NCBI GenBank assembly: GCA_016789955.1
Contig: JAEUPB010000018.1
Location: 62,001 to 126,000 of the forward strand
DNA length: 64,000 nucleotides
Source: Rubrivivax sp.
GTDB taxonomy: Bacteria > Pseudomonadota > Gammaproteobacteria > Burkholderiales > Burkholderiaceae_C
Direction: 5' to 3'
Shown: in pieces, positions 79-16,703 of the stretch
Layout: each line of letters starts with the position of its first letter
Numbering within the stretch: the stretch's first letter is position 1
Position numbers and translations under genes: made by a program
The notes under the pieces: generated by a model
The model's database searches: none
What the model saw: the letters and a program-made list of their open reading frames with translations, nothing else
What the model was told of the DNA's origin: nothing

Positions 79-927
79 ATGCCGCCCCACCCGATGCGCA
101 GCAAGCTGTTCGTGCCCGGCGAGCGCGACGACCTCTACCGCAAGGCGCTGGCCACCGCGGCCGACCAGGTGGCGCTGGACCTGGAGGACGCCGTGCCCGC
201 GGCGCGCAAGCCCCGCGCCCGCGAGTGCGTGCGCGCCTTCCTGCAGGGCGCGGTGGCGCGCGAGCAGGCGTCTCGTCTGATCGTGCGGGCGAACGCCGTC
301 GGCAGCGCGGACTTTCGAGACGACCTGGCCGTGTTCACCGGTGGCGCGCCGGTGGCGGTCGCGCTGCCCAAGGTCGAGTCCGCCGCCGACGTGCAGGCCG
401 CGCTCGCAGCCCTCGACCACGTGCGCGGAGACGACGTGACGCGGCTGCTCTGCACCATCGAGACCCCGCGCGGCCTGCGCCAGGCACACGAGATCGCCGG
501 TGCCAGCCCGCGCGTGGCGGGCCTGCAGCTCGGCCTCGTCGACCTGTTCGCCCAGGCCGGCATCGACCGCGGCGACGCGGCGGCGGTGCACGCGGCGATG
601 TACGCGCTGGCGATGGCCGCGGCCGAGCACGGCGTGCCGGTGTTCGACTCCGCCTACCCGCCGCTGCACGACGAAGCCGGGTTTCGCGCCGAGGCGCTGC
701 GGGCGCGGGCACTGGGCTACGCCGGCAAGAGCTGCATCCATCCGCGACAGGTGCCGTGGGCGAACGAGGTGTTCATGCCCGGCGCGGAGGAACTGGCGCG
801 CGCACGGCGGATCGTCGATGCCGCCGCGCACCATGGCGGCGCCGTGTTCGAGCTCGATGGGGCGATGGTCGACAAGCCGATCGTCGAGCGCGCGCAGCGG
901 CTGCTGGCGCGCGGTGGCACCGCATGA
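79..927 (+). CDS. CitE/HpcH-type acyl-CoA lyase
   Basis: Predicted 282-residue member of the HpcH/HpaI aldolase, citrate lyase beta-subunit family, which cleaves or condenses hydroxyacyl-CoA esters such as malyl-CoA or citramalyl-CoA in the cytoplasm. It opens with the family's RSKLFVPG motif and has DLEDAVP at residues 34-40, the IETPRG strand, an LGLVDLF segment and a C-terminal GKSCIHPRQ motif. I start it at the ATG at 79; an upstream in-frame ATG at 7 adds residues unlike the family, and the ATG at 94 is also possible. The stop overlaps the start of the next gene (ATGA). A class III CoA transferase closes the same gene chain, so the pair could activate and cleave an organic acid. The exact substrate is unknown. 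Confidence 0.85.
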   Translation: MPPHPMRSKLFVPGERDDLYRKALATAADQVALDLEDAVPAARKPRARECVRAFLQGAVAREQASRLIVRANAVGSADFRDDLAVFTGGAPVAVALPKVESAADVQAALAALDHVRGDDVTRLLCTIETPRGLRQAHEIAGASPRVAGLQLGLVDLFAQAGIDRGDAAAVHAAMYALAMAAAEHGVPVFDSAYPPLHDEAGFRAEALRARALGYAGKSCIHPRQVPWANEVFMPGAEELARARRIVDAAAHHGGAVFELDGAMVDKPIVERAQRLLARGGTA

Positions 928-3359
928 CGCGCGGGGCGGCCGCCTTGGACTTGCGCGCGACAGCCCGGGCGCTGCTGCTGTGCCTGGTCTGGGTGGCGGC
1001 GCTGTTCGGGCCAGTCCTGCAGCCGGCCCGGGCCGAGACGCTCGCCCGCGTGCAGCAGGCCGCACTGCCCGCGCCGGTGGGGCCGGTGGCGTGGCTGGTG
1101 TCGTCCGGCGGCACGCTGCTGGCCGGTGACGGCGCGAAGGGCTGGCAGCTCGACGCCGAAGGGCGGCGCTGGACCCCGCTGCCGTGGTCGCTGCCGGCCG
1201 GCATGACAGGCGTGCTCGGCGGATCGGATGCCGCCTACCTGCTGGCCGGCGACGCCGCGAGCCCGGGGCGCGCCACCCGGCTGTGGCGCGTCTCTCCGGA
1301 AGGCCTGCAAGCCCAGCCCGACCTGCCGCGCCCGCTGCGCGACGTGCAGGGCAGCGTGGCCGGCGCCGTGGTGATGATCACCGGCCTCGACGACGAAAGC
1401 CGCCCGCGCGTGTACCGGCTGGCTGCGGGCCAGTGGGCGGAACGGCCGGCCTGGCCGTCGACTGCCGGCGCGGCCCCGGCCTCGGCGCTGTTCGAACAGG
1501 GCGGCGCGCTGTACGCCGTGCTGCCCGGCCCTCGGGCCGAACAGAGGGCCGACCAGATCTGGCGCTGGCTGCCCGCCGAAGGCTGGCGCCTGCGCAGTGC
1601 GGCACCGGGCCGCGTGCTGCCCGGCTCGGGCCGGGTCACGGGGCAGGCCCACCTCGCGTTCGCCCTGGCGCCGCCCGCGGGCGCGGCGTCGGTTCGATGG
1701 ATGACCTGGCAATCGATCACCAACGCCTGGGCACCGCTGGCCGAGCTGCCTGCGAGCGCCGGCACGGGCAGCGTCACGCCGTGGCGGCGCGGCATCGCCT
1801 GGGTCGCCGCCGGCGGGGCCGCACCCGTGCAGATCGAGACGGCAGAGATCGAGCCCGGCCGCCACCTGCTGAAGGGCCTCGACTGGGGCGTGATCGTCAT
1901 CTACCTGGCGGCGATGATGGCCATCGGCGGCTGGTTCTACCTGCGCGAGAAGCGCCAGTCGACGGCCGACTTCTTCGTCGGCGGACGCTCGATCCCGTTC
2001 TGGGCGGCAGGCATCAGCCTGTACGCCACCAACACCAGCTCGATCAGCTACATCGCGATCCCGGCCAAGGCCTTCGAGACCAACTGGACGTACATGACGA
2101 ACAACCTGGTCGCCGTGTGCGGCCTGATGTTCGTCGCCGCGTGGGTGGTGCCGCTGCTGCGGCGGCTCGACCTGATGTCGGTGTTCCAGTACCTCGAGCT
2201 GCGTTTCCACCCGGCCATCCGCACGCTGGCCAGCGCGCTGTGCGTGCTGGTGCAGATCGGCAGCCGGCTGTCGGTGGTGCTGTACCTGCCGGCTCTGGCG
2301 ATCGCCACGATCACGGGGCTGGATGTGGTGTGGAGCGTGCTGCTGATGGGCGGCTTCACGATCGCCTACACGGCACTGGGCGGCATGAAGGCGGTGATCT
2401 GGACCGACGTCGCGCAGCTCGTCGTGATGGCCGGCGGCGCGTTCTTCGCGATCGGCTTCATCGTCTGGCACCTCGACGGCGGCTGGGCCACCTTCGCCGC
2501 GGAGGCGGCGGCGGCCGACAAGACGAAGCTGTTCGACTTCAGCTTCGACCTCACCAAGGCCACCGTCTGGGGCTTCATCTTCCTGGTGCTGTTCGACGTG
2601 GTGCTGACGTTCCCGAAGGACCAGGTGCTGATGCAGCGCGTGCTGTCGACGTCGTCGGATCGCGAGGCCGGCCGCTCGATCTGGGCCTTCGCGGCCATCA
2701 TGATCCCCGGCGGCTTCGTCTTCTACGGCATCGGCACCGCGCTGTACGCGTACTACCGCGCGCACCCCGAGCGCATGGACCCGACGCTGTCGATCGATGC
2801 CACCTTCCCGCTGTTCATCGCCGCCGAACTGCCCGCGGGCCTCACCGGCCTGATCATCGCCGGCATCTTCGCGGCCGCGATGTCGACGCTGTCGTCGATC
2901 ATCAACAGCGTGGCCACGCTGATCTCGGTGGACTTCTACGAGAAGCTGGTGCGCGAACCCGACCCGCAGACCAGCGTGCGCGTGGCCGAGTGGATGTCGG
3001 TGGCCGTCGGGCTGGTGGGCATCGGCGCGGCGCTGGTGCTGTCGCGCTTCGACATCCGCTCGCTGTTCGACGTGTCGATCGAGCTGGCCGGGCTGCTCGG
3101 CGGCGGCTTCGCGGGCGCCTACACGCTGGGCATGTTCACGCGTCGCGCCAACTCGGCCGGCGTGGCGATCGGCATCGGTTCGGCGATCGTGCTGACGACG
3201 GTGGCGTGGTCGATGGACCTCGTGCACCCGTACTTCTACCTGGCGATCTCGATCCTGCTGTGCATCGTGATCGGCTACGTCGCCAGCCTCGCGTTCCCGG
3301 CGCCGACACGGTCGCTGAAGGGGCTCACGATCCACCGGCAGGATCGCGTCGACGGCTGA
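924..3359 (+). CDS. Sodium:solute symporter with N-terminal periplasmic propeller domain
   Basis: 811-residue fusion. Residues 1-34 look like a signal peptide or anchor. Residues about 35-300 are a W/G-rich kelch-like region resembling the cyclically permuted mutarotase (NanM-type) domains found on some SSS transporters. From about residue 313 the chain is a normal-length SSS permease with many membrane helices, including the FFVGGRSIPFWAAG and NTSSISYIAIP segments typical of the family. Such permeases use a sodium gradient to import sugars, sialic acids or organic acids. The propeller would sit in the periplasm and might present the right anomer or bind the ligand. The ATG overlaps the lyase stop, so the two are probably co-translated. 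Substrate is not readable from sequence. The transporter call is firm; the mutarotase-like role is inference. Confidence 0.87.
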   Translation: MTRGAAALDLRATARALLLCLVWVAALFGPVLQPARAETLARVQQAALPAPVGPVAWLVSSGGTLLAGDGAKGWQLDAEGRRWTPLPWSLPAGMTGVLGGSDAAYLLAGDAASPGRATRLWRVSPEGLQAQPDLPRPLRDVQGSVAGAVVMITGLDDESRPRVYRLAAGQWAERPAWPSTAGAAPASALFEQGGALYAVLPGPRAEQRADQIWRWLPAEGWRLRSAAPGRVLPGSGRVTGQAHLAFALAPPAGAASVRWMTWQSITNAWAPLAELPASAGTGSVTPWRRGIAWVAAGGAAPVQIETAEIEPGRHLLKGLDWGVIVIYLAAMMAIGGWFYLREKRQSTADFFVGGRSIPFWAAGISLYATNTSSISYIAIPAKAFETNWTYMTNNLVAVCGLMFVAAWVVPLLRRLDLMSVFQYLELRFHPAIRTLASALCVLVQIGSRLSVVLYLPALAIATITGLDVVWSVLLMGGFTIAYTALGGMKAVIWTDVAQLVVMAGGAFFAIGFIVWHLDGGWATFAAEAAAADKTKLFDFSFDLTKATVWGFIFLVLFDVVLTFPKDQVLMQRVLSTSSDREAGRSIWAFAAIMIPGGFVFYGIGTALYAYYRAHPERMDPTLSIDATFPLFIAAELPAGLTGLIIAGIFAAAMSTLSSIINSVATLISVDFYEKLVREPDPQTSVRVAEWMSVAVGLVGIGAALVLSRFDIRSLFDVSIELAGLLGGGFAGAYTLGMFTRRANSAGVAIGIGSAIVLTTVAWSMDLVHPYFYLAISILLCIVIGYVASLAFPAPTRSLKGLTIHRQDRVDG

Positions 3360-3381
3360 CCGGCCCGGCCCGTCGGGGCCT

Positions 3382-3387
3382 CAGAAT
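3382..3387 (+). promoter_or_regulatory. -10-like hexamer CAGAAT next to LysR start
   Basis: CAGAAT ends 6 nt before the GTG at 3394, with no clear Shine-Dalgarno sequence in the gap. It fits the recurrent short-leader arrangement seen elsewhere in the window. Confidence 0.35.
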
Positions 3388-3393
3388 CGTCGC

Positions 3394-4278
3394 GTGGAGA
3401 CCCAGTTCCTGCAGACCTTCGTCACGGTGGCCGACCTCGGCTCGATGGCCGCCGCCGCGCGGCGCCTGAACATCACGCCGGCCGCCGTGGCGCAGCAGCT
3501 GCACGCGCTGGAGCGCGAGATCGGCGCGCCGCTGGTGGCGCGCGCCGGGCGCACCGTGTGCATCACCGGCGCCGGCTCGCGCATCCTGCGCCACGCGCGC
3601 GAGCTGCTGCGCGGCGTCTCCGACCTGTCGGCGCTGGCGGCCGACGAGCCCGAGGCCGGCGAGCTGCGGCTGGGTGCCGGCACCAATGCGCTCACCGGCA
3701 TGCTGCCCGACGTGCTGGCGCGCATGGTCGAGCGCTTCCCGGCGATCAAGGTGTTCGTGCAGCCGGGCTACTCGCCGGAGCTGTACCGCGCGGTGGAAGG
3801 CGGCGAGCTCGACGCGGCGCTGGTGCTGCAGGCTCCGTTCGCGCTGCCCAAGACCTGCGACTGGCTGCTGCTGCGCGAGGAGCCGCTGGTGGTGCTGGCG
3901 CCCGAGCGCCTGGCGCACCGCGACCCGCACGAGCTGCTGGCCACCGAGCCGCTGATCCGCTATGACCGCCAGCAGTGGGGCGGCCGGCTGGCCGAGCAGT
4001 ACCTGCGGCTGGCCGGCATCGTGCCGCGCGAGCGCTTCGAGCTGAACGCGCTCAACGCCATCGCGGTGATGGTCGACCGCGGCCTGGGCGTCTCGCTGGT
4101 GCCCGACTGGCTGCGGCCGTGGCCCGAGGGGCTGCGCCTCGCACGGCTGCCGTTGCCGATGCCGTTCGAGCCGCGCCGCATGGGCGTGGTGTGGTCGCGC
4201 GCCACGGTGCGTGCGCGTCTCGTCGAGGCCTTCGTCGAGGCCTGCGGCGAGACGGTCGGGGCAAGCAAGAAAACGTAG
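3394..4278 (+). CDS. LysR-family transcriptional regulator
   Basis: 294 residues from a GTG start. The N-terminal winged HTH (about residues 1-60) has the usual layout, with AAARRLNITPAAVAQQLHALE as the helix-turn-helix. A periplasmic-binding-fold effector domain follows to the C-terminus. LysR proteins are usually tetrameric and respond to a small-molecule inducer. It sits on the same strand, inside the gene chain it may control, between the symporter and the TonB receptor, rather than in the usual divergent position. This suggests it is both a member and a regulator of the cluster. Effector unknown. Confidence 0.9.
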   Translation: METQFLQTFVTVADLGSMAAAARRLNITPAAVAQQLHALEREIGAPLVARAGRTVCITGAGSRILRHARELLRGVSDLSALAADEPEAGELRLGAGTNALTGMLPDVLARMVERFPAIKVFVQPGYSPELYRAVEGGELDAALVLQAPFALPKTCDWLLLREEPLVVLAPERLAHRDPHELLATEPLIRYDRQQWGGRLAEQYLRLAGIVPRERFELNALNAIAVMVDRGLGVSLVPDWLRPWPEGLRLARLPLPMPFEPRRMGVVWSRATVRARLVEAFVEACGETVGASKKT

Positions 4279-4414: not shown

Positions 4415-6529
4415 ATGAGACAACTGACGGTCCCCACCCTGGCCCTGGCAGCCGCCGCGCAGGCGGCACTCGCCCAGACCGCACCGGCCGACGACCCCAA
4501 CCGCGAGCAGACGGTCACCATCACCACCGGCACGCGCACGGCCAAGGCCGTCGACAAGATCCCCGGCGCCATCACCGTGGTCGGCAAGGAGGAGGTGGCG
4601 CACACGCTGGCCATCACCGAAGACGCCACCGCCGTGCTGGCACGCTCGGTGCCCGGCTATGCCGAGGCGTCGCAGGCGATGAGCAACACCGGCGAGAACC
4701 TGCGCGGCCGCATCGCTCTGCGCCTGTTCGACGGCGTGCCGCAGGGTTCGCCGCTGCGTGAAGGCACGCGCAACGCGACCTTCACCGACATGGGCGTGAT
4801 CGGCCGCATCGAGGTGATCAACGGCCCCTCGGCCTCCGAAGGCATCGGCGCGGCCGGCGGCATCATCAACTACATCTCCCGGGCGCCCGCGAAGCGCGGC
4901 GACGAGTTCCAGCTCGTCACCCGCTACACCTCGCAGTTCGAGCCCGACAGCGCCGGCTGGAAGGTGGGCTTCACCTACGCCCACAAGGAAGACAAGTGGG
5001 ACCTGATCGCCTCGATCTCGCACGTCGACCGCGGCATGACCTACGACGCCAACGGCCGCGCCATCGGCCTGAACACCAGTGGCTCGGTGGCCGACTCGCG
5101 CGCCAACAACATCTTCCTGAAGGGCGGCTGGAACCTGAGCGACGGCGAGCGCGTGCAGGCCTCGTTCGCCAGCTTCAAGATCACCGGCAAGGGCAACTAC
5201 ATCCTCGTCGACGGTGACCGCGCCACGGGCGTCACCAACACGTCGATCCGCGGCCGGCCGCTGGACGGCAAGACCGAGATCAACGACTTCCAGCAGGCCC
5301 AGGTGTCGTACGACAACGGCAACGTCTTCGGCGGCCAGCTGAGCCTGAACGTCTACATGGCCGACCAGGCGATGCGCTACCCGGCCGAGGACGGCGCCGA
5401 CCGCCAGGACCCGCTGATCAAGCCGCTGGGCACGCTGGTCGACCAGAGCGAGGTGCGCGCCAAGAAGCAGGGCCTGCGCAGCGCGTGGTCCAAGCAGGAC
5501 CTGGGCGGCGTGAAGGGCCTGGAGCTGCGCACCGGCGTCGACCTCGTGCGCGACGAGGTCGACCAGCGCCTGGCGCTGACCGATCGGCTCTGGGTGCCGC
5601 CGATGATCTACAAGAGCGTGGCTCCGTATGCGCAGTTCTCGTACGAGACCGGGCCGCTGACGCTGTCCGGCGGCCTGCGCCGCGAGGACGGCGAGCTGCA
5701 CGTGGACGACTACACCACCACCTACTTCCGCAACCGCGTGTTCGTGCAGGGGGGCACCTTGTCGTACACGGCCACGCTGCCCAACGTCGGCGCGGTGCTG
5801 AAGCTGCCGGCGGGCTGGAGCGCCTTCGCCTCGTACGGCAAGGGCTTCACGCTGCCCAACGTCGGCATCCCGCTGCGCAACATCAACTACCCGGGCCAGT
5901 CGGTGGCAGGCATCCTCGACCTGCAGGCCGTGATCGTGAAGAACAAGGAGATCGGCGCCAGCTGGAAGGGCAAGATGGGCTCGTTCAGCACGTCGTACTA
6001 CGACACCAAGTCCGATCTCGGGCAGTCGCTGTCGATCGACCCGGTGACCAACGACTTCCTGCTGAACCGGCTGCCCGTGCGCATCAAGGGCCTGGAGATG
6101 CAGGGCGAGCTGAACATCTCCCGCGCGTGGCGCGCCACGGCGCTCTACTCGCGCACGCTGGGCAAGACGGTGTTCACCGCCGGCGGGCCGCTCGACCGAC
6201 AGATGGGCGTGCTCGACGTCAACCCCGACAAGATCGGCGCGTCGGCCACGTGGAAGGCGACGCCGGCGCTCGACATGACGCTGGGCGTGACGCAGCTGCG
6301 CTCGCGCGACCTGAACGTCGGCCGCTCCAGCGAGGAGCACACCAAGGGCTATGCGCTGTGGGACTTCAGCGCCAACTACGACATGGGCCGCCACGGCAAG
6401 CTGACGCTGGGCGTCGAGAACCTCGCCGACAAGTTCTACATCCTGAGCTGGTCGCAGCTGCCGGGCTTCCGCAACTACTGGGCCGGGCGCGGCCGTGTGG
6501 TGTCGGTGAGCCACACGCTGACGTTCTGA
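4415..6529 (+). CDS. TonB-dependent outer-membrane receptor
   Basis: 704 residues. A signal peptide ends near the LAQT segment at about residue 21. A TonB-box-like QTVTITTGT stretch follows, then the plug domain (about residues 45-160, with IGRIEVINGPSASEGIGAAGGIINYI) and a beta-barrel that ends in the aromatic-terminated strand SVSHTLTF typical of outer-membrane proteins. It would import a ligand too large for porins, energised by TonB-ExbBD. The start has GAGAAG upstream. The plug has siderophore-receptor features, but the surrounding sugar-type genes suggest a carbohydrate-related ligand. That link is contextual only. Confidence 0.9.
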   Translation: MRQLTVPTLALAAAAQAALAQTAPADDPNREQTVTITTGTRTAKAVDKIPGAITVVGKEEVAHTLAITEDATAVLARSVPGYAEASQAMSNTGENLRGRIALRLFDGVPQGSPLREGTRNATFTDMGVIGRIEVINGPSASEGIGAAGGIINYISRAPAKRGDEFQLVTRYTSQFEPDSAGWKVGFTYAHKEDKWDLIASISHVDRGMTYDANGRAIGLNTSGSVADSRANNIFLKGGWNLSDGERVQASFASFKITGKGNYILVDGDRATGVTNTSIRGRPLDGKTEINDFQQAQVSYDNGNVFGGQLSLNVYMADQAMRYPAEDGADRQDPLIKPLGTLVDQSEVRAKKQGLRSAWSKQDLGGVKGLELRTGVDLVRDEVDQRLALTDRLWVPPMIYKSVAPYAQFSYETGPLTLSGGLRREDGELHVDDYTTTYFRNRVFVQGGTLSYTATLPNVGAVLKLPAGWSAFASYGKGFTLPNVGIPLRNINYPGQSVAGILDLQAVIVKNKEIGASWKGKMGSFSTSYYDTKSDLGQSLSIDPVTNDFLLNRLPVRIKGLEMQGELNISRAWRATALYSRTLGKTVFTAGGPLDRQMGVLDVNPDKIGASATWKATPALDMTLGVTQLRSRDLNVGRSSEEHTKGYALWDFSANYDMGRHGKLTLGVENLADKFYILSWSQLPGFRNYWAGRGRVVSVSHTLTF

Positions 6530-7792: not shown

Positions 7793-8673
7793 CCGACGTG
7801 CTCGTCGCCGGCTCGGCGAACCTCGATCTCGTCGTGCGCACGGCGCGGCTGCCCGCCCCTGGCGAGACCGTGCTCGGCCGCGACTTCGCCGCCCACCCCG
7901 GTGGCAAGGGCGCCAACCAGGCCGTGGCCTGTGCCCGCGCCGGCGGAGCGCCGACGCGCATGCTGCTGGCGTTGGGCGACGACGCGAATGCGGCCGTGCT
8001 CGAAGCCTCGCTCGCCACGGCCGGCGTGCGGCAGCACGTCGTGCGCGCGGCCGACGTGGCCACCGGCGTGGCGCTGATCGGCGTGGCCGACGACGGCGAG
8101 AACAGCATCGTGGTCGCCTCGGGCGCCAACATGGCGCTGCGCCCCGAGCACCTGCCGCCGATGGACGGCGTCGGCCACCTGCTGATGCAGCTGGAGTCGC
8201 CGCTGGAGAGCGTGGCCGCGTGGGCGCGGCAGGCGCGCGCGGCCGGCGTGACGGTGGTGCTGAACGCCGCGCCGGCGACGGCGTTGCCCGAAGGCTTCCT
8301 CGCGGACGTGGACGTGCTCGTGGTCAATGAGGTGGAGTTGGCCCAGCTCAGCCCGGGCGGTGGCGACGTCGAAGCGGCGATGCGCCGGCTGGGCGTGCCG
8401 GTCGTCATCGCCACGCTGGGCGTGCAGGGCTGCGTGGCGCTCACGCCGCAGGGAGTGGTGCGGCAGCCGGCGTACGCCGTGACGGTGGTCGACACCACCG
8501 CCGCGGGCGACACGTTCTGCGGCGCCCTGGTCGCCGCACTGGCGCGGCGGCGGTCGTGGCCCGAGGCGCTGCGCCGGGCGAGCGCCGCCGCGGCGCTGGC
8601 CTGCACGCGGGCCGGCGCGCAATCGAGCATCCCGACGCAGGCCGAGGTCGATCGCCTCGTGGAGGGCGCGTGA
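7780..8673 (+). CDS. PfkB/ribokinase-family sugar kinase
   Basis: 297-residue carbohydrate kinase, close in layout to ribokinase. It has the N-terminal GSANLDLV motif, the GGKGANQA sugar-binding/lid motif at residues 41-48, and the C-terminal DTTAAGDTFCG anion hole with catalytic Asp at about 244. It would phosphorylate a pentose or nucleoside-like sugar with ATP in the cytoplasm. GGAGG lies just upstream. The gene overlaps the preceding hydrolase gene by 13 nt and the following gene by 1 nt (TGATG). In this cluster it probably handles the sugar released by the glycosidase-like proteins. Ribokinase is the nearest name, but ribose specificity is not proven. Confidence 0.85.
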   Translation: MPAMTDVLVAGSANLDLVVRTARLPAPGETVLGRDFAAHPGGKGANQAVACARAGGAPTRMLLALGDDANAAVLEASLATAGVRQHVVRAADVATGVALIGVADDGENSIVVASGANMALRPEHLPPMDGVGHLLMQLESPLESVAAWARQARAAGVTVVLNAAPATALPEGFLADVDVLVVNEVELAQLSPGGGDVEAAMRRLGVPVVIATLGVQGCVALTPQGVVRQPAYAVTVVDTTAAGDTFCGALVAALARRRSWPEALRRASAAAALACTRAGAQSSIPTQAEVDRLVEGA

Positions 8674-10880
8674 TGGACGGAGGCCGCATGAACGATCCGG
8701 TTCCGCCCGCGGAACGCGACGGTCCGCCGGCGCATGCCCCGGGCCAGGGCCGCACGAGCAACGTCCACTTCTCGCACGTCACCACCGGCCGCTGGCTGCC
8801 ACCGCCGGGCAAGGCCCCAGGCTGGCCGTTCGCCGAGATCGGGCACTGGCAGATCGACGCCCAGGCCGCCGCCGAGGACTGGCTCACGGGTCTGCGCGAG
8901 TGGCGCCGCGAGCATCGCTCGCGCCTGGGCTGGGACGACAGCGCGTACCGCCGGCCCGACCTGCAGTGGGCGCAGCGGAACATCGTGCACGTGCAGACGA
9001 TGGTCGAGGACCGCTACTTCTACGATCCCGAGAGCGGCCGCTACACGGTCGACCGCTACCTCGACGACCTCGAGCGGCGCTACGGTGGCGTCGACAGCGT
9101 GCTGGTCTGGTACGCCTACCCGAACATCGGCATCGACGAGCGCAACCAGTTCGACCTGGCGCGCTCGCTGCCGGGCGGGGTCCAGGGCCTGCGCGGCGCG
9201 GTGGCCGACTTCCACCGCCGCGGCGTGCGCGTGTTCCTGCCAGCCAAGCCGTGGGACCACGGCACGCGCGACGAAGGCCGGCCCGAGTGGGAGGCGATGG
9301 CCGAACTGGTGCGCGCCACCGGCGCCGACGGCATCAACGGCGACACCTACAACGGCGTGCCGCGCGCGTTCTACGACGCCTGCGACTCGCTCGGCTGCCC
9401 GGTGGTGCTGGAACCCGAGTCGACGATCTCCTCCGAAGAACAGCTCATGTGGAACGTGCAGAGCTGGACGAAGAAGGTGCCGGCTGATCTGGTGCCCGTG
9501 GTGCCGAAGTGGAAGTGGGTCGAGCCGCGGCACATGATCCACATCGAGAACCGCTGGGGCCGCGACCGCCGGCACGACCTGCAGAACCTGTGCTTCAACG
9601 GCATCGGCTACAACGCGTGGGAGAACGTGTGGGGCATCTGGAACGGCCTCGTCGAGCGCGACGCCGAGGTGCTGCGCCGCCTGGCGACGATCTTCCGCGC
9701 CTGCGCGCCGCTGCTGGTCAGCGCCGGCTGGGCGCCGTATGCGCCGACGCTGCAGCGGCACGTCTACGCAAGCCGCTTCCCCGGTGACGACGGCCGCGTG
9801 CTGCACACGCTGGTCAACCGCGTCGAGTCCGACCTCGACGGCGAGCAGCTCGTGCTGCCGCATCCCGCCGGGGCGCGCTACGTCGACCTGTGGCACGGCC
9901 GCGAGCTGGTGCCGCGCGTCGATGGCGGCTGCGCCTGGCTCTCGTTCCCCATCGAGGCTCTCGGCTACGGCGCCGTGCTGACGCTCGCGCCCGGCGCCGC
10001 GATGCCCGAGCTGCCCGAGCTGCTGCAACGGCTCTCGGCAATGGCCGCGCGGCCGCTGGCGAGCCTGTCGACCGCGTGGCGTTCGCTGCCGCAGACGATG
10101 GTGACGATCGCGCCGACCGCGCCTCGTTCCGAGGCGCCTGAAGGCATGGTGACGATCCCGGGCGGGCCGTACGACTTCGTGGTCGGCGGCGTCGAGATCG
10201 AAGGCCAGCTGTGGGATGGTGTGGATGTGCAGTACCCGTGGGAGCCGAGCGCGCGGCGCTTCCACCGCCACCGCCTCGACGTGCCCACGTTCCACATCGA
10301 TCGCACGCCGGTCACCAACGCGCAGTTCCAGCGTTTCGTGCAGCAGAGCCGCTACGTGCCGCAGGACGCCGGCAACTACCTGCGCCACTGGGTCGACGGC
10401 GCGCCGCCGGCCGGCTGGGATCACAAGCCGGTGACCTGGGTGTCGCTGGAGGACGCGCGGGCCTATGCCGCGTGGGCCGGCAAGCGGCTGCCGCACGAGT
10501 GGGAGTGGCAGCTCGCGGCGCAGGGCCGCGATGGGCGCTTGTACCCGTGGGGCTCCACGTGGGACGGCCACGCCGTGCCGCCCACGCAGCGCGGCCGCAC
10601 GGCGCCGGTGCCGGCCGACGTGGGTTGCCTTCCGCGCGGCGCCAGCCCGTACGGCGTGCTCGACCTCGTCGGCCATGTGTGGCAGTGGACCGACGAGTAC
10701 CGCGACGAACACACCCGCGCCGCGGTGCTGCGCGGCGGCAGCGCCTACCTGCCGCAGACCTCGCACTGGTACTTCCCGCAGGCGCAGCGGCTGGACCAGC
10801 ACGGCAAGTACCTGCTGATGGCGCCTGGCAAGGACCGCTCGGGCTGCATCGGCTTCCGCTGCGTGGTGGACGCGGGATGA
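8673..10880 (+). CDS. Glycosidase-like protein fused to formylglycine-enzyme-like (SUMF1) domain
   Basis: 735 residues from ATG at 8673 (GGAGGG upstream); an in-frame ATG at 8688 is also possible. Residues 1 to about 480 form an unfamiliar domain with features of a TIM-barrel glycoside hydrolase: many aromatics, VWYAYPNIGIDERNQ, an RVFLPAKPWDHGT strand and ADGINGDTYNG. From about residue 490 (MVTIPGGPYDF) it is a FGE-sulfatase/SUMF1 domain with the PVTNAQFQRF, GKRLPHEWEWQLAA and LDLVGHVWQWTDEY signatures. The cysteine pair of true formylglycine enzymes is missing: the RGGSAYLPQ segment has no Cys. It is therefore unlikely to mature sulfatases and may be a binding or catalytic module with another job. 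No signal peptide is visible. Function unknown. Confidence 0.7.
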   Translation: MDGGRMNDPVPPAERDGPPAHAPGQGRTSNVHFSHVTTGRWLPPPGKAPGWPFAEIGHWQIDAQAAAEDWLTGLREWRREHRSRLGWDDSAYRRPDLQWAQRNIVHVQTMVEDRYFYDPESGRYTVDRYLDDLERRYGGVDSVLVWYAYPNIGIDERNQFDLARSLPGGVQGLRGAVADFHRRGVRVFLPAKPWDHGTRDEGRPEWEAMAELVRATGADGINGDTYNGVPRAFYDACDSLGCPVVLEPESTISSEEQLMWNVQSWTKKVPADLVPVVPKWKWVEPRHMIHIENRWGRDRRHDLQNLCFNGIGYNAWENVWGIWNGLVERDAEVLRRLATIFRACAPLLVSAGWAPYAPTLQRHVYASRFPGDDGRVLHTLVNRVESDLDGEQLVLPHPAGARYVDLWHGRELVPRVDGGCAWLSFPIEALGYGAVLTLAPGAAMPELPELLQRLSAMAARPLASLSTAWRSLPQTMVTIAPTAPRSEAPEGMVTIPGGPYDFVVGGVEIEGQLWDGVDVQYPWEPSARRFHRHRLDVPTFHIDRTPVTNAQFQRFVQQSRYVPQDAGNYLRHWVDGAPPAGWDHKPVTWVSLEDARAYAAWAGKRLPHEWEWQLAAQGRDGRLYPWGSTWDGHAVPPTQRGRTAPVPADVGCLPRGASPYGVLDLVGHVWQWTDEYRDEHTRAAVLRGGSAYLPQTSHWYFPQAQRLDQHGKYLLMAPGKDRSGCIGFRCVVDAG

Positions 10881-13708
10881 TGCTCGCGCGGGCCGTGGTC
10901 GCGTGCGGGCTCGGGCTCGCCTTCGGGCTCGCGCTCGTGCTCGGGCCCGGCGGCGCGGCAAGGGCCGCCGCGGCGCCCGCGCCCACGCGGATCGCGCTGA
11001 TTGGCGGCACCAGCACCGAAGCGCCCGGACGGCACGAGTACGCCGCCGGCATCGAGCGGCTCGCGGCGTTGTTGCAGGCCTGGTCGCGCGGCCGTGGCGG
11101 GCGGCCGCTGCAGGTGGATCGCTACCCGGGCGGCTGGCCCGACGACGAGCGGGTGCTGCGCCACGTGCGCACGCTCGTGCTGTACGCCGACGGCGAGGCC
11201 CGTCACCCGCTGCGCGACGCGGGGCGCCGTCGCGTGTTCGACGAGCTGATGCGTCGCGGCGCGGGCTTCGTCGCGCTGCACCAGGCATCGACGGTACCGG
11301 CCGACGGCGATGCGATCGGGCTGCAGGCCGCGCTGGGCGGCGCGCGCATCGGCTTCCACGACCGCACCACCGAGCACGCGACGCTGGAGCCGGCCTCGGC
11401 CGCGCACCCGGTGCTGCGCGGCGTGCGCCCGTACGCGCATCGCGACGAGTTCTATCCGACGCTGCGCTACGCCGCGCAGGGCGTCCTGCCGGTGATCTCG
11501 GCGACGCTGCACGTGCAGGTGCGGGAGGGGCGATCGGTGGTCGAAGACCTGCCCGAGCGCGCCACGGTGGCCTGGGCCTACGAACGGCCCGGCGGCGGCC
11601 GGTCGTTCGGCTACACCGGCGCCCACTACGCCGAGGCGTTCGACGAGCCGATGCTGCGCCGGCTGCTGCTCAACGCGATGCTGTGGACCGCCGACCTCGA
11701 GCCGCCCGCCGCCGACGACGTGGCGGCCGTGGGTGCGACGGCGGCTGCGGCGATGCGGCCCCGCGCCGCGGCGCGATCGTCGGCCTCCCCCGACGACGTG
11801 ACGACCTTCCATCGTGACGCTCTGCGCAGCGGGTGGAACCGCCGCGAGACGGTGCTGACACCCGCGGCCGTCTCCGGCGGGGGCTTCGGGCCGACGTGGT
11901 CGTCGCCGCCGCTGGCCGGCGACGATGCGCAGCCCGCGCGGCTGTATGCATCGCCGCTGTACGTCGAGCGGCTCGCCGTCACCGCCGGGCCGCACCGCGG
12001 CGAGACCTACGCCGCCGTGCTCGCCGCCAGCAGCAACGGCGAGGTGGTGGCGGTGAACGCGGCGCGCGCGGGCGACCTCGCGCCGGGCCGGATCCTGTGG
12101 CGCACGCGGCTGGCGCCTCCGTGCAGGCTGCAGCCCGCGCCGCTCGACGGCGTGGCCACCGGGGTGCTGAGCACGCCGGTCATCGACGTGCCGCGCCAGC
12201 GCCTCTACGTCACGCACTGCGATCCGCACCAGCGCTGGCAGGCCTGGGCGCTGGACCTGGGCAGCGGGGCCGTCCTGCCCGGCTGGCCGGTGCGCCTCGA
12301 CGAGGCGGCCCTGAACGCCGCCAACCGCAATGCCGGCCCCGCGCCGGTGCCGCCGCGGCGGCGATTCGACTTCCGCGTGCAGCGCGGCGCGCTGAACCTG
12401 AGCCCGGACGGCCGCCGGCTCTACGTCGTGTTCGGCGAGACCGAGACGGGCTGGCTGGTGTCGGTGGACACCGAGCGCGCGCGCATCGCCAGTGCATTCG
12501 CGGTGGCGGCGATGCCGCACCGCGGCAGTGGGGGCCTCTGGGGCGCGGGCGGGCCGGCGGTGGACGACGACGGCCATGTGCACGTGGTCACCGGCACCGG
12601 ATTCGAGGGCTACAAGGACCAGCCGCACGACTGGACGCAATCGCTGCTGAAGCTGGCCGACGATGCGCGCGACGGGTTGCGGCTGGCGGGCACGTACACG
12701 CCGTTCAACCATTGCTCGACCGCCGCTGCGGACATCGACCTCGGTTCGGGCGGCGCGATGCTGCTGCCGACGCCTGGCCCGAGGCTCCTGGTGATCGGCG
12801 GCAAGCAGGGCAATGCCTACCTGCTCGATCGCGATCGTCTGCCGGGCAGGCTCGACCGCCGGCCGCCGTGCAGCGACGACCCGACGACCGATGGCTCGCT
12901 GCTGCCACCCGAACCCCAGCCGCACTTCGGCCGGCGCGGCCCGCTGAACGTGTTCGGCCCGTACTCGGAGCGCGATGCGGCACTCGACCTGGCGCGTGCG
13001 CGTTCGGTGCCGGCAGCGTTCCGCGGTGACGACGACCGGTGGTCGATCTACCTGACGGGCAACACGCGCGCTGCGCCGGGGTCGGCGGTGGCCGTGCCTC
13101 CCTCGCTGGTGCGGCTGACGGTGGACGAGTCCGGTGTCGCTCCGCACCTGCGCGTGGAGCGCGCGCAGCCCGACGCCGTCTTCGGAAATCCCGGCTCGCC
13201 TCTGGTCAGCAGCAACGGGCCGCGCGACGCCATCGTGTGGGTGCTGGACGAGAACGCGCCGCGGTCGGCGGCGCTCGCCGGCGCGCGGCCGCCCGCGCCG
13301 GTGCTGCACGCGTACGACGCGCTGACGCTGGCACCGCTGTGGCGCAGCGAACCCGGCGCCCTGCGCACCAGCGGCAAGTACAACGAGCCGCTGGTGGTGC
13401 GCGGGCAGGTGATCGTCGGCACCGATCGCCTGCAGGCCTTCGGGCTCGGTGCCGCCGCGCCGGGCGCGCGACGCCTGCAGCCCTTGCCGGCCGGCGCCGG
13501 CGCGGCCGAGATCTACGCCGCACGCTGCGCCACGTGCCACGAGCAGGCGCAGGGCAACGTGCCGCCGCGCTCGTTGATCGCGCAGCACCCTGTCGAACGC
13601 ATCGCGGCGGCACTGGGGACGGGTGCGATGCGGGTGCACGCCGAAGGTCTCGAGGGTGCCCAGATCGATGCGCTGGCGCGGTTCCTGCGGGAGGGCGCGG
13701 CACGATGA
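10877..13708 (+). CDS. Secreted ThuA-like / PQQ-type propeller / cytochrome c fusion
   Basis: 943 residues with an N-terminal signal peptide (GLGLAFGLALVLG core). Residues about 38-280 are a ThuA-like (trehalose utilisation, class I amidotransferase-fold) domain with RIALIGGTS, GFVALHQAS and the EFYPTLRY region. Residues about 310-855 form a quinoprotein-type beta-propeller with repeated W-x-G and LYVxxG blades. Residues about 875-943 are a mono-heme cytochrome c domain with CATCH at 884-888. The likely role is a periplasmic quinohemoprotein that oxidises a sugar or polyol and passes electrons to the respiratory chain. ThuA-type domains are linked to 3-keto-sugar metabolism. It overlaps both neighbours by 4 nt. 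Domain order is clear; the reaction is inference. Confidence 0.75.
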   Translation: MMLARAVVACGLGLAFGLALVLGPGGAARAAAAPAPTRIALIGGTSTEAPGRHEYAAGIERLAALLQAWSRGRGGRPLQVDRYPGGWPDDERVLRHVRTLVLYADGEARHPLRDAGRRRVFDELMRRGAGFVALHQASTVPADGDAIGLQAALGGARIGFHDRTTEHATLEPASAAHPVLRGVRPYAHRDEFYPTLRYAAQGVLPVISATLHVQVREGRSVVEDLPERATVAWAYERPGGGRSFGYTGAHYAEAFDEPMLRRLLLNAMLWTADLEPPAADDVAAVGATAAAAMRPRAAARSSASPDDVTTFHRDALRSGWNRRETVLTPAAVSGGGFGPTWSSPPLAGDDAQPARLYASPLYVERLAVTAGPHRGETYAAVLAASSNGEVVAVNAARAGDLAPGRILWRTRLAPPCRLQPAPLDGVATGVLSTPVIDVPRQRLYVTHCDPHQRWQAWALDLGSGAVLPGWPVRLDEAALNAANRNAGPAPVPPRRRFDFRVQRGALNLSPDGRRLYVVFGETETGWLVSVDTERARIASAFAVAAMPHRGSGGLWGAGGPAVDDDGHVHVVTGTGFEGYKDQPHDWTQSLLKLADDARDGLRLAGTYTPFNHCSTAAADIDLGSGGAMLLPTPGPRLLVIGGKQGNAYLLDRDRLPGRLDRRPPCSDDPTTDGSLLPPEPQPHFGRRGPLNVFGPYSERDAALDLARARSVPAAFRGDDDRWSIYLTGNTRAAPGSAVAVPPSLVRLTVDESGVAPHLRVERAQPDAVFGNPGSPLVSSNGPRDAIVWVLDENAPRSAALAGARPPAPVLHAYDALTLAPLWRSEPGALRTSGKYNEPLVVRGQVIVGTDRLQAFGLGAAAPGARRLQPLPAGAGAAEIYAARCATCHEQAQGNVPPRSLIAQHPVERIAAALGTGAMRVHAEGLEGAQIDALARFLREGAAR

Positions 13709-15564
13709 ACGGCTGCACCGTGCGGGTCGGCGGGCTGCTCGGCGAGGCGATCGCGGCGAGCCGCCGCGGGCGTCTGTCGCGCTTCATCGTCGACGAGACC
13801 TCGCCCGCGGTGCAGCTCTTCGCTCCCGCGCAGCGCGATGGGCACACCGCTGGCGACTGGTACGGCGAGCACGCGGGCAAGTGGCTGCAGGCCGCGGCCC
13901 GCGCTGCGGCGCACGACGGCGATGCGGCGCTGCGCGAGCGCGTGCGGCGCGTGGCGCGCTTCCTCGTCGCGCAGCAGCAGCCCGATGGGTATCTCGGCAC
14001 CTACGCCGCCAGCCATCGCTTCATGCAGCCCGCGCCACCGGCGCCAGCGCTGCGCGCCTGGGACGGCGCCCCCTCGCGCCGCACCTGGGACCTGTGGGTG
14101 CACGCCTGCCTGCTGCTCGGGCTGCTGGAGGTGCATCGGCACTGGCCCGACGATGCGCTGCGGGCGGCCGCGTGCCGCATCGGCGACCTCTGCGACCGCG
14201 TGCTGCGGACGGGCGACCCGGGTCGTCCACCGATCGACGTCCTGACGCTCGGCAACCACCACGGCCTCTCGGCGACCGTGCTGCTCGACGCCATCGCGCA
14301 GCTGCATGCCGACATCGGCGAGCCGCACCATCTCGCGCTGGCCGAGCACCTGGCGTCGCGCATCGATGCGCTGCCCGAGCCGGCGCTGCTGCAGCGGCTC
14401 GCCGCCGGAGCCGACGCATCGGAGATCGCCACCGGCAAGGCCTACCAGCTGCTGTGGAACGCCGTGGGCCTGGCGAAGCTGCAGCGGCTCACCGGCCGGG
14501 CCGACCTGCTCGCCGCGTTGCAGGCCTTGTGGCGCAACGTGCACGAGCACCACCTGACGCTCGGCGGTGGCCCCTGGGGCGGCGTGGCGCACCGCTCGCG
14601 CGAGGTGTTCAACGCGCGGGGCACGTTCAGCCCGCACGGCTACGTCGAGACCTGCTCGACGATGGCGTGGATCCTGCTGAACCGCGAGCTCCTCGCGATC
14701 ACCGGCGCGGCGGTGCATGCCGATGCGATCGAGCAGGCGCTGTGGAACGACCTGCTCGGCGCGATGGCGCCCGACGGCGAGGACTGGTGCTACTACGTGT
14801 TCCCCAACGGCCGCCGTGCGCACACGACCGCCTGGCGCTGCTGCAAGTCCAGTGGCGCGATGGCACTGGAGGAGATCGCGCCGCTGGTGGCCACGCTCGA
14901 CGAGCGCGACGATGGGGACGTGCTGAGCTGGCACCTGCACGGGCCGGCCACCGTGCGGGCTGGCGACGCAGTGATCGAGCAGCGGGGCCGCTACCCAGTC
15001 GATGGCCGGCTGACCTTCCACGTACATGCGGCGAGCACCGCACGGCCGCTGCACCTGCGGCTGCGCGTGCCCGCCTGGGCCGACGGCGCCACGCTCGAGG
15101 GCGCGCCCTGCGCCGCCGGAGGGTACGTCGACGTGGGCCGGCCGCTGCGGGCCGGCGACGAGGTGCGGCTCATCCTGCCGATGCCGCCGCGGCTGCACCG
15201 GCGCAGCCAGCGCAACGTGCAGGAGTCGGTGGCACCCGACGGAGCGCCGGTGCGGCAGGAGGTGCTGCGGCAGGACTGGGCTGCGCTGACGCGCGGACCG
15301 CTGGTCTATGCGACCGGGCTCGTCGACGGCTACAAGACCGGCGAGACGGTGCTGCTGCCCGAGTCCGGTGATCCGATCGAGACGCTGACGTGCGCCGGCG
15401 GCGATGGCGCCCCCACGCTGCGGCTGCACCCGTTGCGGCGCGCGCCGATCGACCTCGTGCCGTACTACCGCGCCGGCTCCCGCACGCACGGCGCGTGGCG
15501 GCTGACCTGGCTCGCGCTCGCGCCCGACGCCGCCGCACCGTGGACCGAGGAGGGCTCGCCGTGA
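13705..15564 (+). CDS. GH127-like glycoside hydrolase (DUF1680 family)
   Basis: 619 residues, close to the usual length of GH127 beta-L-arabinofuranosidases. The metal/catalytic constellation of that family is present: Glu315 and Cys317 in the ETC motif, then Cys379-Cys380 in WRCCK, with Cys379 in the place of the nucleophile. The (alpha/alpha)6-barrel region (about 1-430) has QQQPDGYLGTY and RTWDLWVHACLLLGLLE, and a beta-sandwich tail follows. No signal peptide is seen, so it probably acts in the cytoplasm on an imported oligosaccharide or glycoside. The ATG overlaps the preceding stop (ATGA), and its own stop overlaps the CoA transferase start. Arabinofuranosidase is the best guess, but specificity varies in this family. 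Confidence 0.78.
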   Translation: MNGCTVRVGGLLGEAIAASRRGRLSRFIVDETSPAVQLFAPAQRDGHTAGDWYGEHAGKWLQAAARAAAHDGDAALRERVRRVARFLVAQQQPDGYLGTYAASHRFMQPAPPAPALRAWDGAPSRRTWDLWVHACLLLGLLEVHRHWPDDALRAAACRIGDLCDRVLRTGDPGRPPIDVLTLGNHHGLSATVLLDAIAQLHADIGEPHHLALAEHLASRIDALPEPALLQRLAAGADASEIATGKAYQLLWNAVGLAKLQRLTGRADLLAALQALWRNVHEHHLTLGGGPWGGVAHRSREVFNARGTFSPHGYVETCSTMAWILLNRELLAITGAAVHADAIEQALWNDLLGAMAPDGEDWCYYVFPNGRRAHTTAWRCCKSSGAMALEEIAPLVATLDERDDGDVLSWHLHGPATVRAGDAVIEQRGRYPVDGRLTFHVHAASTARPLHLRLRVPAWADGATLEGAPCAAGGYVDVGRPLRAGDEVRLILPMPPRLHRRSQRNVQESVAPDGAPVRQEVLRQDWAALTRGPLVYATGLVDGYKTGETVLLPESGDPIETLTCAGGDGAPTLRLHPLRRAPIDLVPYYRAGSRTHGAWRLTWLALAPDAAAPWTEEGSP

Positions 15565-16703
15565 ACAACACCGCGCCGCCGGCAGCGGGCCCGCTCGGCG
15601 GCATCGCCGTGCTCGACCTGAGCGCCTACATCGCCGGGCCGTATGGCTGCGCGCTGCTGGCCGACCAGGGCGCCGACGTGCTGAAGATCGAGCCGCCCGA
15701 TGGCGACAACCTGCGCAAGTACCCGTCGACGCTGGCGAGCGAGAGCCGTGCCTTCGTCGGCGTGAACCGCGGCAAGCGCGGCATCACGCTGGACCTGAAG
15801 TCGCCCGCCGGGCTGGCCACGCTGCTGCGCCTCGTGCAGCAGGCCGACGTGCTGGTGCACAACTTCCGCCCCAGCGTGCCGCGGCGACTGGGCATCGCCT
15901 TCGAGCAGCTGCAGGCGCTCAACCCGCGCCTCGTCTACTGCTCCGTCACCGGCTACGGCGAGAACGGGCCGATGCGCGACAAGGCCGGCTACGACCAGGT
16001 GCTGCAGACGATGACCGGCATGTGCACGCTGCAGGGCAAGCGCGGCGGCGCGCCGGAGGTCATCTACGGCTCGGTGGTCGACTACTACGCCGCGGCGCTG
16101 GTGGCCGCCGGCGTGTCCTCGGCGCTGTACGAGCGCGAGAAGAGCGGCCTGGGCCAGCATGTCGGCATCTCGCTACTGGCCAGTGCGCTGACGATGCAAT
16201 CCGCGCGGCTGGTGTGGGCCGACGGCGAGCCGCGCGACGTGTGGCGCGACATGCGTTCCGGCGGCATCACGGGGCTGCACCCGACGCGCGACGGCTGGCT
16301 GTACCTGTCGGCCAACACGCCGCGCTTCTGGTCGGCGCTGTGCACGCTGGCCGGGCTGCCGGAGCTGCTGGCCGATCCACGCTACGCCACCGTGCGGCTG
16401 CGCGCCGAGCATGCCGACGAGCTGCTGCCGCGGCTGCACGCGGCGCTGGCCCAGCGCTCCGCCGACGAGTGGGAACAGTGCTTCGGCGACGAGGTGCCTT
16501 GCGCGATGGCGCGCCGCGTGGAGGACATGTTCGAGCATCCGCAGGTGGTCGCCGAAGGCATGGTCGGCGAGTTCGAGCATCCGCTGCTCGGCCGCTACCA
16601 GGGCGTGACGCACCCGATCAAGTTCAGCCGCACGCCGGGGCCGGTGCCGCGTGCGGCACCGGCGCTGGGCGAGCACAACGGCGAGCTGGACGCGGGCGGC
16701 TGA
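15561..16703 (+). CDS. Class III (CaiB/BaiF) CoA transferase
   Basis: 380 residues from a GTG that overlaps the glycosidase stop. Family features are the N-terminal GGIAVLDLSAYIAGP, ADVLKIEPP, the GKRGITLDLKS loop and the AGYDQVLQTMTG segment carrying the likely catalytic aspartate. These enzymes move CoA between carboxylic acids through an aspartyl-CoA thioester. With the CitE-like lyase at the other end of the chain it could form a two-step activation and cleavage route, like the succinyl-CoA:malate or itaconate/citramalate routes known elsewhere. The acid it uses is unknown. It is the last gene of the cluster and converges on the malic enzyme gene. Confidence 0.87.
   Translation: MNNTAPPAAGPLGGIAVLDLSAYIAGPYGCALLADQGADVLKIEPPDGDNLRKYPSTLASESRAFVGVNRGKRGITLDLKSPAGLATLLRLVQQADVLVHNFRPSVPRRLGIAFEQLQALNPRLVYCSVTGYGENGPMRDKAGYDQVLQTMTGMCTLQGKRGGAPEVIYGSVVDYYAAALVAAGVSSALYEREKSGLGQHVGISLLASALTMQSARLVWADGEPRDVWRDMRSGGITGLHPTRDGWLYLSANTPRFWSALCTLAGLPELLADPRYATVRLRAEHADELLPRLHAALAQRSADEWEQCFGDEVPCAMARRVEDMFEHPQVVAEGMVGEFEHPLLGRYQGVTHPIKFSRTPGPVPRAAPALGEHNGELDAGG

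What the first reader, a model, noticed from the sequence alone, without database searches (positions are those of the whole stretch)
79..16703. Undescribed-looking catabolic gene chain combining TonB uptake, quinohemoprotein oxidation, GH127, kinase and CoA-dependent cleavage
Ten same-strand genes, mostly overlapping, bring together families rarely seen in one operon: CitE-like lyase, propeller-fused SSS symporter, LysR, TonB receptor, class C hydrolase, ribokinase-type kinase, glycosidase-like/SUMF1 fusion, ThuA/PQQ/cytochrome c fusion, GH127-like enzyme and CaiB transferase. This covers outer-membrane uptake, periplasmic oxidation, sodium-driven import, glycoside cleavage, phosphorylation and CoA activation. 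It suggests a complete route for an oxidised or decorated glycoside. The pathway is inference; the gene order is seen.
Basis: partly seen in the sequence, partly recalled or inferred. Interest (0 to 1): 0.72.

Follow-up and report, generated by a model that had tools for sequence, protein, structure and literature searches.

The report
Widespread acyl-glycoside catabolic operon
A chain of about ten genes that most likely lets soil and plant-associated bacteria take in a sugar compound carrying an acid side group and eat both halves; the same gene order recurs in distantly related bacteria and I found no description of it.

Summary
The ten same-strand genes at 79-16703 are real and form one unit. 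Of the 80 best relatives (kept from 396), 51 keep the order CitE-SSS-LysR-TonB-serine hydrolase-PfkB-GH/FGE-(ThuA fusion)-GH127-CaiB, mostly Lysobacterales, some Burkholderiales; Sphingomonas has a rearranged version. A shared DNA box lies before TonB and CitE and, in about half the loci, before CaiB. A weight matrix built without the window has its two best sites of 64 kb before the window's TonB and CitE genes. CitE and CaiB are one fused protein in one genome. The serine hydrolase is replaced by other esterase families in some relatives. Best reading: uptake of an acyl-glycoside, ester cleavage, deglycosylation, sugar phosphorylation, and CoA activation plus lyase cleavage of a released hydroxy-dicarboxylate (perhaps 3-hydroxy-3-methylglutarate or citramalate: inference). 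The SUMF1 fusion carries a TIM-barrel domain with no Pfam family and invariant acidic residues at candidate catalytic positions. New variant of a known kind; substrate untested.

The parts
2..32 (+). putative regulatory box upstream of the CitE-like gene
   Evidence: second-best site of the 64 kb for a matrix built from relatives without the window: 1.8 bits, third best -3.0
79..927 (+). CitE/HpcH-HpaI-type C-C lyase; best solved matches 3qll (citrate lyase) and 8khl (probable acyl-CoA lyase)
   Evidence: PF03328 136.8 bits; below the RipC/Ccl equivalog cut-off, 160.6 vs 375
924..3359 (+). sodium:solute symporter with an N-terminal extension of about 310 aa that begins with a hydrophobic stretch
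   Evidence: PF00474; nearest solved symporter 5nv9, E 4.9e-78; extension has no Pfam match
3394..4278 (+). LysR-type regulator
   Evidence: PF00126 and PF03466
4261..4291 (+). putative regulatory box at the LysR-TonB junction (overlaps the end of the LysR gene)
   Evidence: best site of the 64 kb, 23.6 bits, matrix without the window
4415..6529 (+). TonB-dependent receptor
   Evidence: PF00593 and PF07715
6551..7792 (+). exported-looking PF00144 serine hydrolase, best solved matches are esterases; YSMTKP motif
   Evidence: class C beta-lactamase models shown are all far below cut-off
7789..8673 (+). ribokinase-type PfkB sugar kinase (alternative start 7780)
   Evidence: PF00294; TIGR02152 267.1 bits vs cut-off 299.65
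8688..10880 (+). glycosidase-like TIM barrel plus beta domain, no Pfam family, fused to a SUMF1/FGE-like domain (alternative start 8673)
   Evidence: PF03781 on the C-terminal part only; model of 450 residues of the N-terminal part pLDDT 86.1, pTM 0.90; Foldseek
10877..13708 (+). ThuA domain, large middle region without a Pfam match, C-terminal cytochrome c CxxCH; accessory gene
   Evidence: in 10 of 80 loci
13705..15564 (+). GH127-type glycosidase, ETC and CC motifs kept
   Evidence: PF07944 134.2 bits
15561..16703 (+). family III (CaiB/BaiF) CoA-transferase, GTG start
   Evidence: PF02515 399.3 bits

Best explanation
The chain is one LysR-controlled catabolic operon for an acylated glycoside. 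The TonB receptor brings the compound through the outer membrane. An exported esterase (PF00144 here, other esterase families in some relatives) removes an acyl group, and the symporter carries sugar-containing and/or acid products inward. Two cytoplasmic glycosidase-like proteins (GH127 and the new TIM-barrel/SUMF1 fusion) release the sugar, and a ribokinase-type kinase phosphorylates it. The released acid is activated by the CaiB CoA-transferase and split by the CitE-like lyase to acetyl-CoA plus a keto acid or acetoacetate. The acid is therefore most likely a 3-hydroxy-dicarboxylate such as 3-hydroxy-3-methylglutarate or citramalate. Shown: gene order, conservation, shared DNA box, CitE-CaiB fusion, esterase replacement, conserved motifs. 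Inferred: regulation by this LysR, cell location, order of steps, identity of acid and sugar. I put about 0.65 on an acyl-glycoside and about 0.3 on those two acids.
For: Order kept in 51 of 80 loci: 46 without and 5 with the ThuA gene. GH-FGE and GH127 occur in the same 4 of 81 congeners, own genome included. CitE and CaiB are one open frame in G721, and a CitE-CaiB pair also sits close together in G005 beside an isochorismatase-fold and a polysaccharide-deacetylase-fold protein, in a genome without the GH-FGE gene. Of the 11 loci without the PF00144 hydrolase, 4 (L037, L042, L044, L062) have a PF00756 esterase (Pfam run on 3 of the 4); G325 has a PF00135 esterase between GH127 and CaiB. DNA box: above 0 bits upstream of TonB in 75 of 77 (circular, the matrix comes from there), of CitE in 54 of 61 and of CaiB in 38 of 77, versus 10 elsewhere in 3,328,578 positions, 6 of these still in a long LysR-TonB interval. 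An exact pattern hit 12 places in 9 of 24 genomes, each within about 10 kb of the GH-FGE gene (coordinates compared); 0 in the 6 genomes without that gene; 0 for the reversed control. [quoted passage not shown] its section headings name (S)-citramalyl-CoA and (R)-HMG-CoA lyase activity. GH127 ETC and CC motifs in 73 of 73 relatives of over 550 aa.
Against: No substrate evidence. CitE is below the RipC/Ccl cut-off and CaiB below the succinate-glutarate transferase cut-off. PfkB is not found in 10 of 80 loci; 2 of these are contig fragments but 8 are complete there, with gaps of 69-232 bases where it should be. Five loci (L048, L104, L105, L110, L113) show no relative of the PF00144, PF00756 or PF00135 proteins, and the PF00135 replacement was found in G325 only, in none of the 80. 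9 of the 18 GH-FGE carriers tested lack the exact DNA pattern, this genome included. The CitE family is common: 47 of 81 congeners have a relative. The fusion was seen in one unnamed assembly. The 80 loci are the best of 396, so biased to close relatives, and only 4 of the 51 (L068, L073, L080, L095) bear a Burkholderiales name.
Confidence: 0.5

Rival explanations
1. A plant cell-wall or glycoprotein arabinoside system in which GH127 releases an L-arabinofuranose-type sugar, and the CoA pair handles an acid from the sugar's own breakdown rather than an ester group.
For: GH127 motifs; ribokinase-type kinase; a transaldolase-like relative in 16 of 80 loci; the GH-FGE homologue of Spirosoma sits with GH28, GH36 and SusC/SusD genes; five loci show no relative of the three esterases.
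Against: No arabinose isomerase, epimerase or ribulokinase family in the ten genes. A CitE-CaiB pair recurs without the GH-FGE gene. The esterase slot is filled by other esterase families in several relatives.
Confidence: 0.15
2. A detoxification or piracy route for a glycosylated natural product, siderophore-like or toxin-like, rather than a food route.
For: The TonB receptor scores best with siderophore-type and heme-type receptor models although below cut-off; patchy presence, 4 of 81 congeners, and a copy of five of the genes on a mobilizable Sphingopyxis plasmid.
Against: Kinase, symporter, CoA-transferase and C-C lyase point to carbon recovery. Receptor scores below cut-off do not define substrate.
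Confidence: 0.15
3. One reading: periplasmic oxidation of the glycoside by a quinohemoprotein is the central step.
For: ThuA and cytochrome c domains in one protein; CxxCH and a C-terminal Met invariant in 9 of 9; weak PQQ_2 match in 2 of 9 members; ThuA also in the Spirosoma cluster.
Against: No PQQ domain in the window protein at E <= 1; no solved quinoprotein matched up to E 1; gene present in only 10 of 80 loci.
Confidence: 0.06
4. An itaconate or simple dicarboxylate pathway that happens to lie beside sugar genes.
For: CaiB plus CitE-like enzymes resemble two of the three enzymes of itaconate degradation (PMC12290011, abstract).
Against: No hydratase-family gene among the ten; the whole order is conserved with the glycosidases in 51 of 80.
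Confidence: 0.05

Closest known systems
TonB-linked carbohydrate utilisation loci of Xanthomonas (recalled) and SusC/SusD polysaccharide utilisation loci (recalled)
   Same: outer-membrane TonB receptor, regulator, inner-membrane transporter and glycosidases in one locus
   Different: no SusC/SusD pair in the ten genes, plus esterase, CoA-transferase and C-C lyase
Itaconate degradation cluster (CoA transferase, itaconyl-CoA hydratase, (S)-citramalyl-CoA lyase; PMC12290011, abstract and section list seen)
   Same: CoA-transferase plus CitE-type lyase
   Different: no hydratase; both enzymes below the curated equivalog cut-offs tested; embedded in a glycoside operon
Rv2498c, bifunctional citramalyl-CoA / (R)-HMG-CoA lyase (PMC6689899, abstract, start of introduction and section list seen)
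   Same: same lyase family, matched by the window protein (6aq4 and related entries; that these are Rv2498c is recalled)
   Different: leucine and itaconate catabolism, no glycosidases
GH127 beta-L-arabinofuranosidases, PDB 3wkw and 4qjy
   Same: catalytic domain, ETC and CC motifs
   Different: distant (67-80 bits), substrate unknown
Fumonisin catabolic cluster of Sphingopyxis (recalled, nothing read)
   Same: TonB receptor plus esterase that frees a polycarboxylic acid from an ester
   Different: no glycosidases; other acid

Membership tests
GH127 glycosidase | catalytic domain above Pfam cut-off | tested here: met
   PF07944 134.2 bits vs 24.9
GH127 glycosidase | zinc-cysteine active-site motifs (ETC, CC: positions recalled; a zinc-coordinated cysteine is named in the start of the abstract of PMC10728902, listing) | tested here: met
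   73 of 73 relatives; window sequence
GH127 glycosidase | beta-L-arabinofuranosidase activity | not testable with these tools
   needs enzyme assay
RipC/Ccl citramalyl-CoA lyase | curated equivalog score | tested here: not met
   160.6 vs 375 bits
Succinate-glutarate CoA-transferase | curated equivalog score | tested here: not met
   226.4 vs 750 bits
Family III CoA-transferase | PF02515 domain and conserved Asp segment GYDQV (Asp role recalled) | tested here: met
   399.3 bits; 72 of 72 relatives
Itaconate degradation cluster | itaconyl-CoA hydratase gene in the cluster | tested here: not met
   no such domain among Pfam matches of the ten genes
Sulfatase-activating FGE | FGE domain | tested here: met
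   PF03781 122.1 bits
Sulfatase-activating FGE | active-site cysteine pair after RGGS (spacing recalled) | tested here: not met
   positions S+3 (Q/R/L/K/V) and S+8 (H) hold no Cys in 20 of 20
Quinohemoprotein dehydrogenase | PQQ-binding propeller domain | tested here: inconclusive
   none in window protein, weak PQQ_2 in 2 of 9 members
Quinohemoprotein dehydrogenase | cytochrome c CxxCH | tested here: met
   C884, C887, H888 invariant in 9 of 9
Ribokinase (RbsK) | curated equivalog score | tested here: not met
   267.1 vs 299.65 bits; PfkB family itself met
Class C beta-lactamase | curated score | tested here: not met
   all class C models among the 25 of 29 families shown are far below cut-off, e.g. 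27.3 vs 415

The most novel reading that the evidence does not exclude
An undescribed pathway that consumes both halves of an acyl-glycoside: the sugar through a new glycosidase family (TIM barrel fused to a non-catalytic SUMF1 fold) plus GH127 and a kinase, and a branched hydroxy-dicarboxylate (3-hydroxy-3-methylglutarate or citramalate) through a dedicated CoA-transferase/CitE pair, all under one LysR box.
Probability: 0.3. Interest if true: 0.78.

Novelty: new variant of a known kind. Interest (0 to 1): 0.6.

Why it matters
It gives a testable role to a gene set that recurs across proteobacterial orders and whose members carry only general labels in the two public plasmid records seen (for instance 'SUMF1/EgtB/PvdO family nonheme iron enzyme'). 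It points to a glycosidase-like family with no Pfam model and to an ester-bound hydroxy-acid as a carbon source, and it supplies a DNA box as a ready test of co-regulation.

Tried and rejected
Searched solved structures with the ThuA fusion profile for a quinoprotein: only cytochrome-type matches to the C-terminus, the best at E 0.012. Considered that the SUMF1 domain activates a sulfatase: rejected as the general role because the cysteine pair is absent in 20 of 20 and a relative of the G016 sulfatase-like protein lies in only 1 of 80 loci, which is G016's own record. Considered class C beta-lactamase: rejected on curated scores. Considered itaconate catabolism: rejected for lack of a hydratase. 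The first structure model (20 sequences, pLDDT 57.8; Foldseek on it) was too poor; the N-terminal part alone with 64 sequences gave pLDDT 86.1. Foldseek finds alpha-amylase-type (GH13) and GH27 folds at TM about 0.5, so no GH clan is assigned. Literature searches with GH127, SUMF1, CaiB, citrate lyase, ThuA, ribokinase, citramalyl-CoA lyase and related terms listed no paper on this cluster that I recognised; four of them found nothing at all. Only open-licence papers are held, and of those searches only listings and starts of abstracts were seen. Searches were background searches on the lyase and GH127. Samples of the phylum and the order found few carriers, own genome included: 4 of 398 and 2 of 300.

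Full report
Observation. The window is G000:C28:62001-126000. The ten genes exist at the stated places and strand. Five of nine junctions overlap by 4 bases. The unit is bounded by genes on the other strand on both sides, so the chain is complete in the window.

Conservation. The GH-FGE protein was used as probe. Relatives of its N-terminal part at E <= 1e-10 exist in 4 of 81 genomes of the genus, own included; GH127 relatives at E <= 1e-20 occur in the same 4 of 81. A scan of named genomes gave 396 stretches encoding a relative, of which the best 80 were kept: by record title mostly Lysobacterales (Pseudoxanthomonas, Lysobacter, Luteimonas, Stenotrophomonas, Dyella, Rhodanobacter and others), then Burkholderiales (Aquabacterium, Roseateles, Pelomonas, Paucibacter, Rubrivivax), Sphingomonas and some unclassified MAGs. 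By tblastn (at least 35% identity), 46 of 80 have exactly CitE-SSS-LysR-TonB-hydrolase-PfkB-GHFGE-GH127-CaiB on one strand and 5 more add the ThuA fusion, together 51; 8 lack PfkB and ThuA only; several of the rest are cut by contig or flank ends. Of the 51, four (L068, L073, L080, L095) have a Burkholderiales name. Two Sphingomonas loci have LysR-SSS-CitE divergent from TonB-PfkB-GHFGE-GH127-CaiB. In the genus of G385 (contig length equal to L047, Pseudoxanthomonas beigongshangi) 26 of 38 genomes have the GH-like domain, in the genus of G194 (contig length equal to L096, Stenotrophomonas sp. SY1) 21 of 91. Wide samples are poor: 4 of 398 in the phylum and 2 of 300 in the order, own included. 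A mobilizable Sphingopyxis plasmid carries TonB-ribokinase-GHFGE-GH127-CoA transferase. A Bacteroidota plasmid (Spirosoma) carries a 34% identical, nearly full-length GH-FGE homologue in a locus with GH28, GH36, ThuA and SusC/SusD genes, with no GH127 among the listed features. Patchy presence suggests horizontal transfer (inference; no tree was built).

Linkage evidence. In G721 CitE and CaiB are one open frame, residues 1-275 and 284-654, at 53-59% and 67-72% identity to the reference proteins; an assembly error cannot be excluded. That locus has a LacI-type gene by reading and no LysR match among its called genes. In G005, a congener without the GH-FGE gene, a CitE relative (52%) and a CaiB relative (68%) lie close together with an isochorismatase-fold and a polysaccharide-deacetylase-fold protein. 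So the pair behaves as a module, and in both settings it sits beside hydrolases that could free a dicarboxylic acid (inference). Eleven of 80 loci lack a PF00144 relative. In four of them (L037, L042, L044, L062, all Burkholderiales) a PF00756 esterase relative lies between LysR and TonB (Pfam confirmed for three). Two (L109, L111) are contig fragments. Five (L048, L104, L105, L110, L113) show no relative of any of the three esterases; L048 and L105 are also cut. In G325 (unnamed, same phylum, laid out as in Sphingomonas) a PF00135 carboxylesterase lies between GH127 and CaiB; no relative of it was found in the 80 loci. The window hydrolase matches esterases best in the PDB and has YSMTKP; 62 of 64 relatives keep a YSM[ST]K motif. 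PfkB is absent from 8 otherwise complete loci, where hydrolase and GH-FGE matches are 69-232 bases apart, so a kinase in the locus is not essential everywhere.

Regulatory box. A 31-base matrix was made from 34 distinct sites (59 of 62 loci with a LysR-TonB gap); the window was not used. In the window the two best positions on both strands are 4261 (23.6 bits, before TonB) and 2 (1.8 bits, before CitE); the third is -3.0, mean -69.5, sd 13.2. Across the 80 loci a site above 0 lies upstream of TonB in 75 of 77 (circular), of CitE in 54 of 61 and of CaiB in 38 of 77, and 10 elsewhere among 3,328,578 positions; 6 of those 10 are still in an extended LysR-TonB interval. In the window GH127 and CaiB overlap, so no separate CaiB box is expected. 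An exact pattern over 24 whole genomes gave 12 matches in 9 genomes, each within about 10 kb of the GH-FGE gene, 0 in the 6 genomes without the gene, and 0 for the backward control; but 9 of 18 carriers, this genome included, had none. That this LysR binds the box is inference.

Proteins. CitE-like: best PDB matches 3qll, 8khl, 9nzb, 1sgj; RipC/Ccl 160.6 bits, below the 375 cut-off, citE 164.9, also below. CaiB: best PDB matches are 10uh, named formyl-CoA transferase, and 9br6, named succinate-hydroxymethylglutarate CoA-transferase; NCBIfam succinate-glutarate transferase 226 bits, below the cut-off. GH127: PF07944; the ETC and CC motifs, recalled as parts of the zinc-cysteine site, are in 73 of 73 relatives. 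Symporter: nearest solved protein 5nv9 (recalled as the sialic-acid transporter SiaT). Kinase: nearest solved proteins are ribokinases, but it is below the ribokinase cut-off. GH-FGE: no Pfam family on the first 508 residues at E <= 1. The AlphaFold model of 450 residues has pLDDT 86.1 and pTM 0.90: alternating strands and helices of a barrel followed by a beta domain. Foldseek best hits are GH13-type and GH27 enzymes, TM about 0.5, 9-13% identity, a fold-level likeness only. D192, E217, E260 and E285 of the model are invariant in 64 of 64. In the Spirosoma alignment the equivalents of D192, E217 and E285 are kept, E260 is not. D192 follows strand 188-191 and E217 ends strand 213-217; which strands these are in the barrel, and that GH13 holds nucleophile and acid/base at the ends of its fourth and fifth strands, is my reading and recall. 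The SUMF1 domain lacks the FGE cysteines, so it is unlikely to make formylglycine. ThuA fusion: ThuA and CxxCH cytochrome present, PQQ domain not detected in the window protein. A crude hydrophobicity measure is highest for the N-termini of the symporter, ThuA and hydrolase proteins and lowest for GH-FGE; it does not separate CaiB or GH127 well, and its TonB entry used a late start. No signal-peptide program was available, so cell locations are inferred.

Mechanism and limits. I commit to an acyl-glycoside operon: uptake, ester hydrolysis, import, deglycosylation, phosphorylation, CoA activation, C-C cleavage. The absence of a hydratase argues for an acid that already carries the 3-hydroxyl. 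Citramalate and 3-hydroxy-3-methylglutarate fit because a CitE-like enzyme, Rv2498c, is reported to act on both CoA esters (PMC6689899, abstract, start of introduction and section list seen). The itaconate comparison rests on the abstract of PMC12290011. Nothing here shows the substrate.

Novelty. Eight literature searches listed no paper on this cluster that I recognised. The kind (TonB-linked catabolic operon) is known; the combination, its conservation and the barrel family without a Pfam model make it a new variant.

Noticed in passing
L024 19131-20000 continuing into L025 1-1380 (- strand, G016): The G016 copy of the operon has an extra sulfatase-like gene with a CSPTR segment (named by reading, motif recalled) between LysR and the symporter; a relative is in 1 of 80 named loci, G016's own record L036.
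   Followed up: partly
L144 8333-12776 (G005): A CitE-CaiB pair with an isochorismatase-fold hydrolase, a polysaccharide-deacetylase-fold protein and a short-chain dehydrogenase: perhaps a cyclic imide or amide route to a dicarboxylate (inference).
   Followed up: partly
L141 19863-22037: Spirosoma plasmid locus where the GH-FGE homologue sits with GH28, GH36, ThuA, two Gfo/Idh/MocA oxidoreductases and SusC/SusD, so the protein is not confined to this operon.
   Followed up: partly
L065, L069, L072, L075, L079, L085, L089, L092, L094, L096, L097, L099, L101, L102, L103, L106: A transaldolase-like gene (named from its sequence) occurs in 16 of 80 loci, in 14 called directly after CaiB on the same strand, which would fit a pentose product.
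   Followed up: no
window 34703-38352: Two tandem genes for family 5 extracellular solute-binding proteins, PF00496, about 610 aa each.
   Followed up: no
L089, L092, L097, L103: Four Stenotrophomonas loci have two TonB matches after LysR and a strong box (35-40 bits) downstream of LysR: a possible receptor duplication.
   Followed up: no
   Followed up: no
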